Positions 24,621 through 39,027 of a stretch of DNA of 64,000 bases are shown piece by piece. How positions within the stretch are numbered: the first letter of the stretch is position 1; each line of letters opens with the position of its first letter. A program made the translations under genes and the position numbers. Under the pieces are notes generated by a model. The model was not told the DNA's origin and searched no databases. It saw only the letters and a list, made by a program, of their open reading frames with translations. Origin of the DNA: Pseudomonadota bacterium (lineage in GTDB: Bacteria; Pseudomonadota; Alphaproteobacteria; Acetobacterales; Acetobacteraceae). The stretch is taken from the NCBI GenBank assembly GCA_019352115.1, contig JABBNW010000001.1:1-64000 (forward strand). The letters run 5' to 3'.

Positions 24621-25616
24621 TCAGATGGCCCTCTCCACGAGGGAAGAATGGTCCGATCCGGACCTTTCTTGTCCCGGCCAGATGCGCCGTCCGCCGCCCG
24701 GACGGAACCGCGCCAGGTAATCGGGCACCACGAGGTCCATCGGCGTCGGCACGATGCCAAGCTCCGCCAGACCAGGCATTCCCGCCGACACGATCGCGTC
24801 GCGAGCCAGCATGAGCAGTTGGTCGCGGGTGAAGGGCTTGCCGGGGATCAGTTCCCCGAACTGCGCCTGTAGCCGCGCGAGACCCATCGGCAGGGTGACC
24901 AGCTTGCGCCGCCGGCCGGTCCAGGTCAGCACCGCTTCCATAAGTTCCCGGAAGCTGCGCACGTCCGGCCCGCCGAGTTCGAAGATCGTTCCCTGTGCGT
25001 CGGCCCGGTCAAGCGCGGCCAGGGTCGCGTCCGCCACGTCGCCGACATAGACCGGTTGGAACCGGGTCGCCCCGCTGATCACGGGCATGATCGGGAGCAG
25101 CCGGGCCATGCCGGCGAAGCGGTTGAAGAACGCATCCTCCGGCCCGAACACGAGCGAGGGGCGCAGGATCGTGGCGCCGGGAAAGGCCTGGCGCACGGCG
25201 GCCTCCCCGGCGGCTTTGCTGCGGCCGTAGGCGCTGGGGCTCGCCGGATCGGCGCCGATCGCCGAGAGATGCACGAGACGGGCGACCCCGGCGGCGGCGG
25301 CGATCCGGGCGACCCGGCCGGCGCCTTCCCCATGCACGCGGTCGAAATCGCCGCGGCGCTGTTCGGCCAGGATGCCGACCAGGTTCACCGCCCAGGTGGC
25401 GCCTTCCAGCGCGCGGTGGACGTGCCCTTCGTCCACGATCGGGCCGAACAGGGGGACGATCTGGCCGACCGCGCCCATCGGCTTGAGGAAGCCGGCGCCG
25501 ACCGGGTCGCGCACTGCCACCCGGACGATGAAGCCGCGGCGCGCCAGCCGCTGCACCACGTAGCGGCCGATGAAACCGGAGCCGCCGAATACCGTCGCGA
25601 TCGTGCGGGTTGCCAT
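24621..25616 (-). CDS. NDUFA9-like NAD(P)-binding protein (complex I-associated SDR family)
   Basis: This 331-residue atypical short-chain dehydrogenase has the dinucleotide loop VFGGSGFIGRYVV (residues 9-21), then LSAIGADPASPSAYGRSKAAGE with a Tyr-x-x-x-Lys pair, and GPEDAFFNRFAGMARLLP, a signature shared with the mitochondrial complex I accessory subunit NDUFA9 and its alphaproteobacterial relatives. It may be a complex I assembly factor or a quinone-related reductase; bacterial members are not well characterised. The ATG at 25616 precedes the nucleotide-binding strand directly. It stands alone, between gltD and a tRNA on the other strand. Confidence 0.85.
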   Translation of the reverse strand: MATRTIATVFGGSGFIGRYVVQRLARRGFIVRVAVRDPVGAGFLKPMGAVGQIVPLFGPIVDEGHVHRALEGATWAVNLVGILAEQRRGDFDRVHGEGAGRVARIAAAAGVARLVHLSAIGADPASPSAYGRSKAAGEAAVRQAFPGATILRPSLVFGPEDAFFNRFAGMARLLPIMPVISGATRFQPVYVGDVADATLAALDRADAQGTIFELGGPDVRSFRELMEAVLTWTGRRRKLVTLPMGLARLQAQFGELIPGKPFTRDQLLMLARDAIVSAGMPGLAELGIVPTPMDLVVPDYLARFRPGGGRRIWPGQERSGSDHSSLVERAI

Positions 25617-36014: not shown

Positions 36015-36236
36015 ATGAGTCATACGACCCTGTTCCGATCCAATCGCTCGCAGGCGGTGCGTCTGTCGAAGGCGGTCGCGTTTCCGCCCGGGGTGCACGA
36101 AGTGGCTGTCCTGCGGGACGGCGCACGGCGCGTGATCGTACCGGTGGATGCGGTATGGGACGACTTCTTCGATGCCCCGGGGATTGACCTGCCGGAGCGG
36201 GACGCGCCGCGGGCGGAGTCGCGCGAGCCGTTCTGA
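36015..36236 (+). CDS. vapB: VapB-type antitoxin (AbrB/VagC fold)
   Basis: This 73-residue protein starts TTLFRSNRSQAVRLSKAVAF, the swapped-hairpin AbrB DNA-binding domain of the VagC/VapB group, and ends with DDFFDAPGIDLPERD, the flexible tail that normally inserts into the VapC active site. The ATG at 36015 is the only sensible start. Its TGA overlaps the toxin ATG (TGATG), the usual coupling that keeps antitoxin in excess. Confidence 0.93.
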   Translation: MSHTTLFRSNRSQAVRLSKAVAFPPGVHEVAVLRDGARRVIVPVDAVWDDFFDAPGIDLPERDAPRAESREPF

Positions 36237-36655
36237 TGCTGCGCTACCTGCTGGACACGAACCTCTGCATCCGCCTGCTGCGCGATCGCCCGCAGGGGCT
36301 GCGGGCGCGTTTCAACGCCGAGGCGGCGGCGCTCTGCACCTCGGCGGTGGTGCTGGCGGAACTGTTGCACGGCGCGGCGAAATCCGCGCGCCCGCTGGAG
36401 AACCGGCAGGAAGTGGAGCGGTTCGCCGCCCGGCTGGAGGTGCTCGCCTTCGATCCGGCGGCGGCGTCCCATGCCGGGGAGATCCGGGCGGCCCTGGAAC
36501 GGCGGGGGGAGACGATCGGCGCCTATGACGCGCTGATCGCCGGGCATGCGCGGAGCCAGGGGCTGGTGGTGGTGACCGGCAATCTGGGTGCGTTCCGGCG
36601 GGTGGAGGGGCTGCGGTGCGAGGACTGGCTGGCCGGCGCGATGCCCGGGGGATAG
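36236..36655 (+). CDS. vapC: VapC-type toxin, PIN-domain ribonuclease
   Basis: This 139-residue PIN-domain protein has the acidic metal ligands Asp7 (LLDTN), Glu42 (LAELLHG) and Asp98 (GAYDALIAGHA). The fourth position reads VTGN (Asn116), a common variant of the VTND/VTNN motif. VapC toxins cleave tRNA or rRNA when freed from VapB. All catalytic positions look intact, so this module is probably functional, unlike the two MNT/HEPN modules further right. Confidence 0.93.
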   Translation: MLRYLLDTNLCIRLLRDRPQGLRARFNAEAAALCTSAVVLAELLHGAAKSARPLENRQEVERFAARLEVLAFDPAAASHAGEIRAALERRGETIGAYDALIAGHARSQGLVVVTGNLGAFRRVEGLRCEDWLAGAMPGG

Positions 36656-36791
36656 AGCGCGGGAGGGGAGACGGGCGTTCCGCTCCGGCCACCCGCATAG
36701 GGGTGCCGAAAGCGGCGAGCGTTGGTCCGACCTTCGCGATGAAGCCGGATATCGGCCTAAGCCCAAGGGGGAGGCCGAATGGTGGGGATAA

Positions 36792-37430
36792 TTAGTTCGA
36801 TATCGTAACGATATGGGCGTGCATAAGCCGGCCCGGCTCGGCGCCGGATTTGCATCCCATCCGACAACTTCGGCCCCGCCCGCCCGCGCGACCGGATCGG
36901 CCGCTTGTCCCGTTCGTTGCGAGGCGGGCCGCAGCGCGCGCGATCCACCCGGAGCCATCCCGCCAAACGGGCGCGGGATCGGCGGGCCGGGGATCGGCGG
37001 CCGGCAGGTCGGCCATTGCGGGGGGCGCAGCAACGCTTGCGTCAGCGCAGGCCTGATGGCGGGCTGGGAAAGCAGCCGGAGCCGCCGGCGCCGCGATCGC
37101 GGCAACCGCGGGTGCGGGCGTAGCGGGGGAAAGCGCAGGCGGGGACTGGGGGAGCGAATCGTGGTCCGGCCGGCTCGGGAGCGCGCTTTGGGGACGGGAT
37201 TCGGGGGCCGACGACGGCGCGGAACCGGGCGGCGAGAGGGGGCAGACGGCCGGCAGGGCGCCGGCGAGCGTGGGGACCGGGCTCGCTTGATCGGTCTCCG
37301 CCTGATGGTCCCCCGCCTGGTCAAGCGCCGCCTGGTCGCGCAAGGCGTTCCGCTCGCGGATCTCGGCGAGGCGCGCGGCCAGCCAGGCGAGGAGGGCGGT
37401 AAGCTTGTCGATGAAGGAGGCGGGGATCAT
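36792..37430 (-). CDS. Hypothetical protein behind a LexA-box promoter
   Basis: This 212-residue protein starts MIPASFIDKLTALLAWLAAR followed by LAEIRERNALRDQ, a possible amphipathic or membrane-associated helix. The middle is a long Pro/Ala-rich low-complexity region. The C-terminus reads GSGWIARAAARLAT and ends HAHIVTISN, an ending I associate with small conserved Acetobacteraceae proteins but cannot name. ATGs at 37442 and 37430 are in frame; 37430 is preferred because the other lies inside the -10/LexA box. Neither has a clear ribosome site, so translation may be leaderless. Function unknown; SOS control is suggested. Confidence 0.45.
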   Translation of the reverse strand: MIPASFIDKLTALLAWLAARLAEIRERNALRDQAALDQAGDHQAETDQASPVPTLAGALPAVCPLSPPGSAPSSAPESRPQSALPSRPDHDSLPQSPPALSPATPAPAVAAIAAPAAPAAFPARHQACADASVAAPPAMADLPAADPRPADPAPVWRDGSGWIARAAARLATNGTSGRSGRAGGRGRSCRMGCKSGAEPGRLMHAHIVTISN

Positions 37431-37436
37431 GTCTGC

Positions 37437-37471
37437 GAACATATATAGAACATTTGGCCGGGGCGAGGCAA
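37437..37471 (-). promoter_or_regulatory. Candidate SOS promoter: LexA box over a sigma-70-like promoter
   Basis: On the minus strand GTTC-TATATAT-GTTC (37437-37451) exactly fits the alphaproteobacterial LexA box GTTC-N7-GTTC. It overlaps a -10-like TATATA (37442-37447), which is 18 bp downstream of a -35-like TTGCCT (37466-37471). The hypothetical gene would start 7 bp past the box. Confidence 0.5.
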
Positions 37472-38364
37472 GCGATTTCTGTCGCCGGTCGGCAATTCTC
37501 TTTTGGCCAGGACTGCGCCTGACCAGGACGCGCCGCAGGGAGCAGGCTCCGCCACGGCGGCAGGGAGAAGGGCCGGGAGTTCGCGGCGGCGGTGGCGGCC
37601 TCCTTCGTGCCGCCGCGGTGGCGCCTGCCTTTGCATTGCGCCCGCCCCTTCGCCGGCAAACCGAGACGTGCCGGCGGCAAAGGGCGATATGCGCGGGTGC
37701 CGCTGCGCTGGGGGCCTCGTTGTGGCTGCTCGCCATCCCTCCGAGGGCCGGGCACCGCTCCGGCGGCTGATCCGCCGATGGCCAAGGCAGCGATGTGCAA
37801 GCTGTCCTGAAATAGCTCTGTAACCGCCCGGGTGGAAAACGCACGAGCGCTCCGCGGCGCCGCTTCCCCGTGCGATTCGGGGCTGGCCGGCGAGCGGTGC
37901 CGCGATTGCCACGGCCTGGGCATGGCGGTTGCGGGACGGCAAGCGCTCGAACTTCGGGGCTGCTGTCGCTCCGGCGGCGCGGGAGAGAGGCGTGGCGGCG
38001 TAGCGGGGGGGAGCACGCCTGGAACGTGGTCCGCCGGCGCTGTATCGGTTGTTGCGGTCAGCCGAGCGGACGTGCGCTTGGCACGATTGCGTGAGGCGGT
38101 GGCGGAGAGGGCGGTCGAGCCGCTCCATCTGGCGGAGCCGGAGCGAGTTTATATTGAAGAATCAATATATTGCGGGGACTATCCCCGATAACTGCGGGGA
38201 GATGTGGGGGATGTCTGCCGGCGGGGACCGTTCGGGGGCGCGTTGGATTTTTTTTGGGACGCCCGCATTTTTCACTTCCCTAAACGTCCGTTAACGGTAT
38301 TATGCCTTCCAGCGGCGGGCGACGGGTCGGCTGCGCGGCACACATATAACCGAGGTTCGGTGAG
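37472..38364. other. Intergenic region before the first PEP-CTERM gene
   Basis: About 890 bp. The first 600 bp are very GC-rich and hold no reading frame with family-like sequence. The last ~230 bp contain stacked palindromes (38149-38186), a T-rich tract with T8 (38249 region), and the palindrome CCGTTAACGG (38288-38297) followed by TATTAT, a likely promoter zone for the gene at 38365. Confidence 0.5.
38149..38186. promoter_or_regulatory. Adjacent palindromes upstream of PEP-CTERM gene 1
   Basis: TATATTG-AAGAAT-CAATATA (38149-38168) is followed at once by CGGGGA-CTA-TCCCCG (38172-38186). Both are perfect inverted repeats. They lie ~180-215 bp upstream of the start and could be operators or a transcript hairpin. 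Confidence 0.4.
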
Positions 38365-39027
38365 ATGACGTCTTCTATGTCTTCATGGCTGCGCAGAGCA
38401 GCGGTTTGCGCTGGCGTCGCGCTAATAGTCGCGCCCGGTGTGGCAATGGCGACTCCCGTACCGGGATCAGATGCGTTCAGTGTTCTCGGCGCAATCACGA
38501 CGACCCCTGCGGGCGCTGACCTCGCGTCGGCGACGACGATCAGTTTGGCCGGAGTGGTCTGGAACACGGGGAATGGTTCGCTTTCGGCCATTCCTGCAGG
38601 AACCTCGATCACTGCGAGCACGGTGGATTTGGCGAACCTTGCCGCGTTTAACTTCTCTTCCGCTGACGGGTCGTTCCAGGCGGAAAGCAGCGTGACGATC
38701 GGCAGCAATACGTTCAGTCCCGCTATTGTGGGGCGTACGGGCAGCGCAGCAGCGGGTACCGAGTCTCTCTCCATTTACGAGGTCGGCAACTTCACCGGTG
38801 CTGGTACGACGGCAGGGCTCAACCAGACGATGAGCATGACGCTGTCGTTTACCGAGACGGCGGGCGGTGCGATCACCCCTGACAACCTGGGTACGTTTTC
38901 GCTGAGTGCCACGATGGCGACGCCAGCCAACGTGCCGCCCGCGCCACAGGTCCCGGAGCCCGCATCGATGCTCATCCTGGGCTCGGGTCTCCTTGGTCTC
39001 GGAATGGTTCGTTTCCGGAATTCCTGA
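38365..39027 (+). CDS. PEP-CTERM sorting-domain protein 1
   Basis: This 220-residue exported protein has a signal peptide (AAVCAGVALIVAPGVAMA), a Ser/Thr/Gly/Ala-rich beta-type body without cysteines, and a C-terminal sorting signal: VPEPAS at 196-201, a hydrophobic stretch MLILGSGLLGLGMV, and a short basic end RFRNS. In PEP-CTERM systems such tails are recognised by an exosortase, then cleaved. No exosortase is in this window, so sorting would depend on a gene elsewhere. The TGAG just before the ATG is a weak ribosome site. Composition is less GC-biased than neighbours. Confidence 0.9.
   Translation: MTSSMSSWLRRAAVCAGVALIVAPGVAMATPVPGSDAFSVLGAITTTPAGADLASATTISLAGVVWNTGNGSLSAIPAGTSITASTVDLANLAAFNFSSADGSFQAESSVTIGSNTFSPAIVGRTGSAAAGTESLSIYEVGNFTGAGTTAGLNQTMSMTLSFTETAGGAITPDNLGTFSLSATMATPANVPPAPQVPEPASMLILGSGLLGLGMVRFRNS

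What the first reader, a model, noticed from the sequence alone, without database searches (positions are those of the whole stretch)
37437..37471. Perfect LexA box overlapping the promoter of an unknown Pro-rich protein
GTTC-N7-GTTC on the minus strand covers a TATATA -10 element with a TTGCCT -35 at 18 bp spacing, 7 bp before a possible leaderless ATG. A DNA-damage-inducible gene of unknown function would be notable, and it lies in the toxin-antitoxin zone.
Basis: partly seen in the sequence, partly recalled or inferred. Interest (0 to 1): 0.55.

Follow-up and report, generated by a model that had tools for sequence, protein, structure and literature searches.

The report
DNA-damage switch on repeated gene family
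The predicted DNA-damage control site is very probably real, but it belongs to one worn copy of a large, unnamed gene family that sits under the same kind of switch many times over in this bacterium and its relatives.

Summary
The site is as described: GTTCTATATATGTTC at 37451-37437 (-), over TATATA, TTGCCT 18 bp upstream, ATG 6 nt downstream. Alone it is at chance level; comparison makes it convincing. The own genome holds 14 copies of the same promoter plus gene start, and all 14 keep GTTC-N7-GTTC. Three copies in a sister species keep all eight GTTC bases with altered spacers and have intact genes of 230-249 codons. The genome's own lexA and recA carry such boxes. The family has no Pfam, NCBIfam, PADLOC or PHROGs model, occurs in 61 of 397 sampled genomes, and gave 60 matches in one genome. 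There, 40 surveyed promoters are leaderless with a 15-bp slot at the start codon: 15 exact LexA boxes, 25 a second motif, with at least four switches on the gene tree. The LexA reading holds, for part of the family. The Pro-rich protein does not: after about 45 codons the window ORF is out of frame with intact relatives, and only those codons show purifying selection. Most likely LexA represses many scattered genes for small helical proteins at once. Their action is unknown; I favour a short amphipathic effector slowing growth or division. No bench data.

The parts
37466..37471 (-). -35 element TTGCCT
   Evidence: TTGCC present in most of the 17 aligned close copies, two of its columns invariant
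37437..37451 (-). LexA box GTTCTATATATGTTC
   Evidence: all eight GTTC bases identical in 17 of 17 close copies
37442..37447 (-). -10 element TATATA inside the box
36792..37430 (-). ORF of 212 codons, near-leaderless ATG; body out of frame with intact relatives
37296..37430 (-). conserved N-terminal segment (about 45 codons), amphipathic helix, purifying selection
36781..36891 (-). 3' block conserved as DNA, read in different frames by different copies
   Evidence: limits approximate
36795..36809 (-). near-palindrome GTTACGATATCGAAC, which lies after the stop codon in intact relatives

Best explanation
The box is a LexA operator in the promoter of one member of a dispersed multicopy gene family. 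Step 1 (strongly inferred): LexA on GTTC-N7-GTTC covers the -10 and start region of a near-leaderless promoter and keeps it silent. Step 2 (inferred from the known SOS pathway): DNA damage activates RecA, LexA is cleaved, and all copies with the box come on together. Step 3 (shown by sequence): intact members encode roughly 190-250 aa, strongly basic, mostly helical proteins; in this genome's 14-copy subfamily only the promoter, the first ~45 codons and a 3' DNA block are still conserved. Step 4 (guess, about 0.3): the amphipathic N-terminal helix is a short effector, at the membrane or on a partner protein, that slows growth or division after damage. The confidence given is for steps 1-3, not for step 4.
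For: Exact box in 14 of 14 own-genome copies with a complete gene start, found also without using the box. Three sister-species copies with different spacers and intact ORFs. Eight of eight GTTC columns invariant in 17 copies, 0 of 14 columns between -35 and box. Boxes at own lexA and recA and at lexA in 7 of 9 other genomes with a lexA hit. Box abutting a start codon 54 times against 2 for the reversed motif in 16 genomes; 19 of 30 such loci read start a family gene there. Passages of PMC12700426 and PMC8565304 give this LexA motif for Alphaproteobacteria. N-terminal pN/pS 0.47 in the ATG frame against 1.38 and 1.36.
Against: No binding or expression data. In the window alone the box is at chance level. 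Many members lack an exact box: 25 of 40 in G178, 12 of 18 in G257, 2 of 2 in G351, 11 of the 12 further G004 copies read, and 6 of 6 copies of the own genome's second subfamily, which are one base off. The 14 copies are related, so not 14 independent cases. lexA of G351 and G222 has no exact box, and no lexA hit was found in G004.
Confidence: 0.7

Rival explanations
1. A dispersed repeat spreads or is homogenised as DNA. Promoter with box, gene start and 3' inverted repeat are the parts of the element that are kept, the ORF between them is a decaying passenger, and the box is regulatory baggage or serves the element.
For: The 3' block is kept as DNA while being read in different frames; no frame is strongly constrained beyond codon 45; a GTTNY motif follows the stop in 44 of 66 family genes against 6 of 66 further on; many copies lie at contig ends.
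Against: The first 43 codons show protein-level selection; sister-species genes are intact; two boxed copies stand at the same place in two species (G257, G351).
Confidence: 0.25
2. The window copy is a relic: promoter and box still work or did so recently, but the product has no function.
For: Frameshift against intact relatives; no constraint beyond codon 45.
Against: All 14 copies keep the promoter, box and first 45 codons under selection.
Confidence: 0.25
3. The intact proteins are DNA- or RNA-binding proteins that protect or organise the chromosome after damage.
For: pI 11.1-12.0 in all 21 aligned members; disordered tail rich in Pro and Arg.
Against: No fold match beyond common helical arrangements; a second boxed family is mostly acidic.
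Confidence: 0.2
4. The match is an accident of an AT-rich promoter and LexA is not involved.
For: Chance level in the window alone.
Against: GTTC invariance against variable surroundings and altered spacers, boxes at lexA and recA, and 54 against 2 sites for the reversed motif.
Confidence: 0.08

Closest known systems
Alphaproteobacterial LexA (SOS) regulon, e.g. Caulobacter crescentus
   Same: GTTC-N7-GTTC operator in the promoter; the 15-mer GTTCTTGTTATGTTC reported at two mitomycin-induced Caulobacter genes (passages of PMC12700426) also stands before family genes in G004 and G178.
   Different: Here one unnamed family fills many slots of the regulon, with the box directly at the start codon of near-leaderless genes.
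SOS-induced small effectors such as SidA or TisB (recalled, not tested)
   Same: LexA control and a short amphipathic or hydrophobic N-terminal helix.
   Different: Dozens of scattered copies; intact members are about 200 aa and strongly basic; no target known.
Second boxed alphaproteobacterial family found here (alignment A4)
   Same: TTGAC-type promoter with GTTCTTGTTYYGTTC directly before ATG, about 200 aa, all-helical model, no curated family in 8 members tested.
   Different: Mostly acidic; homology not established by profile comparison (probability 1.7%).
VapBC toxin-antitoxin pair next door (36015-36655)
   Same: Neighbour only; the second gene has a PIN domain.
   Different: Opposite strand, convergent; no shared promoter.

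Membership tests
Alphaproteobacterial LexA regulon | GTTC-N7-GTTC in the promoter | tested here: met
Alphaproteobacterial LexA regulon | Same box at lexA and recA of the same genome | tested here: met
Alphaproteobacterial LexA regulon | Box conserved upstream of relatives | tested here: met
   17 of 17 close copies; in the wider family only a part: 15 of 40, 6 of 18 and 0 of 2
Alphaproteobacterial LexA regulon | LexA binds the site and the gene is induced by DNA damage | not testable with these tools
   needs bench work
Any curated protein family (Pfam, NCBIfam, PADLOC, PHROGs) | Score above the family's cut-off | tested here: not met
   no match above a cut-off for the members scanned
SOS division inhibitors or SOS membrane peptides (SidA, SulA, TisB) | Blocks division or depolarises the membrane | not testable with these tools
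   only an amphipathic N-terminal helix was computed
Toxin-antitoxin module with the neighbouring VapBC | Shared operon or recurrent partner | tested here: not met
   convergent, separate promoter; neighbours of the other copies were not surveyed
Transposable element | Target duplications and empty sites | not tested
   only conserved ends and a 3' inverted repeat were seen

The most novel reading that the evidence does not exclude
A lineage of Alphaproteobacteria has hyper-expanded one unnamed gene family (60 matches in one 4.4-Mb genome). Each gene stands behind a leaderless promoter with a 15-bp regulator slot at the start codon, and evolution repeatedly swaps that slot between a LexA box and a second motif (GTTAG-N5-(C/T)TGTC). 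The result is a scattered array of near-duplicate effectors fired in sets by DNA damage or by another signal. In the window's genome one set of 14 has shrunk to promoter plus a roughly 45-residue amphipathic head.
Probability: 0.4. Interest if true: 0.85.

Novelty: new variant of a known kind. Interest (0 to 1): 0.68.

Why it matters
If true, a large share of the SOS regulon in some Acetobacteraceae-like bacteria is one unstudied, multiplied gene family, so LexA does much more there than control repair genes. Paralogues with and without the LexA box in one genome are a natural test of how genes move in and out of a stress regulon. The family is also a defined target for asking what these bacteria do after DNA damage.

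Tried and rejected
Rejected: the window site judged alone (chance level); the Pro-rich ORF as a conserved protein; membership in a curated protein family; presence on phages or plasmids (one protein: none) or viral contigs (one protein: none); an Rfam RNA at 36400-38400 (none at gathering scores). No PDB fold stood out: best E 2.9, best Z 7.2, a designed cage protein; this does not exclude a known fold. Homology of the two boxed families is not established.

Led nowhere: literature. Searches of the held library listed no paper that I recognised as describing LexA control or a multicopy family of this kind in Acetobacteraceae. I saw listings and abstracts only, plus passages of PMC12700426 and PMC8565304 and passages of PMC13384398, so this is no proof of absence from print. 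One search treated genome-search loci as turned to the match; they are not, so I discarded it and redid it. My notebook says 20 of 30; recounting its output gives 19.

Full report
1. The observation. The minus strand carries TTGCCT (37471-37466), an 18-bp spacer, TATATA (37447-37442) inside GTTCTATATATGTTC (37451-37437), and an ATG at 37430 after 6 nt. The ORF runs to 36792, 212 codons. In the window alone GTTCN7GTTC is expected 1.42 times and found twice; 39 of 100 shuffles do as well. The site is real but not significant by itself.

2. It is a repeat. The own genome (4.76 Mb, 385 contigs) has 100 GTTCN7GTTC sites against 40 for the reversed motif. Fourteen are nearly the same 15-mer (8 GTTCTATATATGTTC, 5 GTTCTATATACGTTC, 1 GTTCTATGTATGTTC), and all 14 lie in one conserved block of promoter, box and gene start. 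A DNA search that did not ask for the box and an N-terminal profile search return the same 14 copies with a complete gene start; further pieces lie mostly at contig ends (C48, C232, C364, C76).

3. The box is under selection. A profile of the 14 gene starts (A1), run against 397 genomes of the taxonomic family, found three copies in the same-genus genome G004. They carry GTTCTATCTTTGTTC, GTTCTATTTATGTTC and GTTCTATATCTGTTC in the same place and intact ORFs of 249, 231 and 230 codons. Over these 17 promoters all eight GTTC bases are identical in 17 of 17, while none of the 14 columns between -35 and box is. The genome's single LexA hit and its recA have such a box upstream. Of nine other genomes with a LexA hit, seven have an exact box upstream of it; G351 and G222 do not. 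No LexA hit was found in G004. Published passages give GTTC-N7-GTTC as the alphaproteobacterial LexA motif (PMC8565304, PMC12700426). PMC12700426 reports GTTCttgttatGTTC at two early Caulobacter SOS genes with mitomycin C data. Family genes G004:C20 and G178:C93 carry that same 15-mer.

4. The family. A profile of the three intact proteins (A2) hits 61 of 397 genomes of the taxonomic family, 21 of 102 genera. A wider profile (A5) hits 45 of 395 genomes drawn from the order, 20 of 84 genera; every listed hit is in the same family. Per genome A5 gives 60 matches in G178, 25 in G004, 21 in G000, 19 in G257, 13 in G233 and 10 in G351; some are fragments at contig ends. No Pfam, NCBIfam, PADLOC or PHROGs model fits the members scanned. 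The model of one member (mean pLDDT 74.8) has two long N-terminal helices, a linker, a small helical part and a disordered tail. pI is 11.1-12.0 in all 21 aligned members. That the taxon is Acetobacteraceae is my inference from record titles and the size of the group; the genome search gives no names.

5. A regulator slot. Of 60 copies surveyed (40 G178, 18 G257, 2 G351), 58 show TTGCCC or TTACCC about 30 bp before the start codon. An exact LexA box sits in the slot in 15 of 40, 6 of 18 and 0 of 2; the reversed motif is exact in 0 of 60. In G178 a further 22 of 40 have GTTAG-N5-(C/T)TG(T/C)C directly before the start codon and 3 are similar. On a tree of these 40 proteins the label needs 8 changes, at least 4 of them forced by starred branches, against a shuffled mean of 12.4 (quick method). 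So the slot has switched repeatedly. From the DNA side, GTTCTN6GTTC(A/G)TG occurs 54 times in 16 genomes against 2 for the reversed motif; of the 30 loci read, 19 start a family gene exactly there and 11 do not. Twenty others were aligned as a second boxed family (A4); homology to the first is not established.

6. What is left of the gene here. In the 14 own-genome copies the first 43 codons show pN/pS 0.47 in the ATG frame against 1.38 and 1.36 in the other frames. Beyond codon 45 no frame shows strong constraint (0.70-1.29; two groups, 11 of the 14 copies). Intact G004 proteins match the window copy first in frame 1 and then in frame 3: the Pro-rich part is the other frame of the old gene. 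The ORF reads through GTTACGATATCGAAC (36809-36795), which lies after the stop in intact relatives. A GTTNY motif 18-50 nt after the stop occurs in 44 of 66 family genes against 6 of 66 further on; a GTT-led inverted repeat in 13 of 66 against 0. The genome's second subfamily has TTGACA and GTTC-N7-GT(C/A)C, one base off the box, in 6 of 6 copies with a visible start.

7. Evidence against, and limits. There are no expression or binding data. Most members outside this subfamily lack an exact box. The 14 copies are relatives, not independent cases. Single proteins only were tested against phage, plasmid and viral collections. Flank comparison of 74 loci found matching positions between G257 and G351 (two places) and one short G000/G233 match, so old genes and mobile repeats cannot be told apart fully. 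Many genomes are drafts.

8. Mechanism. LexA occlusion of the -10 and start region, relieved by RecA-driven cleavage, is the best-supported account of control (about 0.85 for the box being a LexA site). The function of the product is open. I commit, at about 0.3, to a short amphipathic effector that slows growth or division (N-terminal helix moment), against a DNA-binding protein, a relic or a DNA repeat.

Noticed in passing
L335-L374 (G178): 25 of 40 surveyed family promoters carry a second conserved motif (GTTAG-N5-(C/T)TGTC or similar) in the same slot as the LexA box; its regulator is unknown.
   Followed up: partly
G178:C92:80355-80519: A second, weaker LexA-type DNA-binding match in the genome that has the second motif (E 1.2e-4).
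   Followed up: no
L245, L209, L254, L222 and others (alignment A4): A second unnamed alphaproteobacterial family with GTTCTTGTTYYGTTC directly before ATG, many copies in MAG CRAIB_MAG65.
   Followed up: partly
window 36795-36809: Near-palindrome GTTACGATATCGAAC; a similar motif follows the stop codon of most family genes across genera.
   Followed up: partly
window 37498-37666: DNA upstream of the window copy (about -215 to -47 from the box) resembles DNA downstream of the C160 copy.
   Followed up: no
L395-L400 (own genome): A second subfamily with TTGACA and a one-base-off box GTTC-N7-GT(C/A)C directly before ATG, many copies at contig ends.
   Followed up: partly
window 36015-36655: Small ORF without Pfam match followed by a PIN-domain (VapC-type) gene (PF01850, E 7.9e-23).
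   Followed up: partly
window 38365-39027: Gene for a protein with a PEP-CTERM motif (PF07589, E 1e-5).
   Followed up: no
window 24977-24991: Second GTTCN7GTTC site in the window, GTTCGAAGATCGTTC; at chance level.
   Followed up: no
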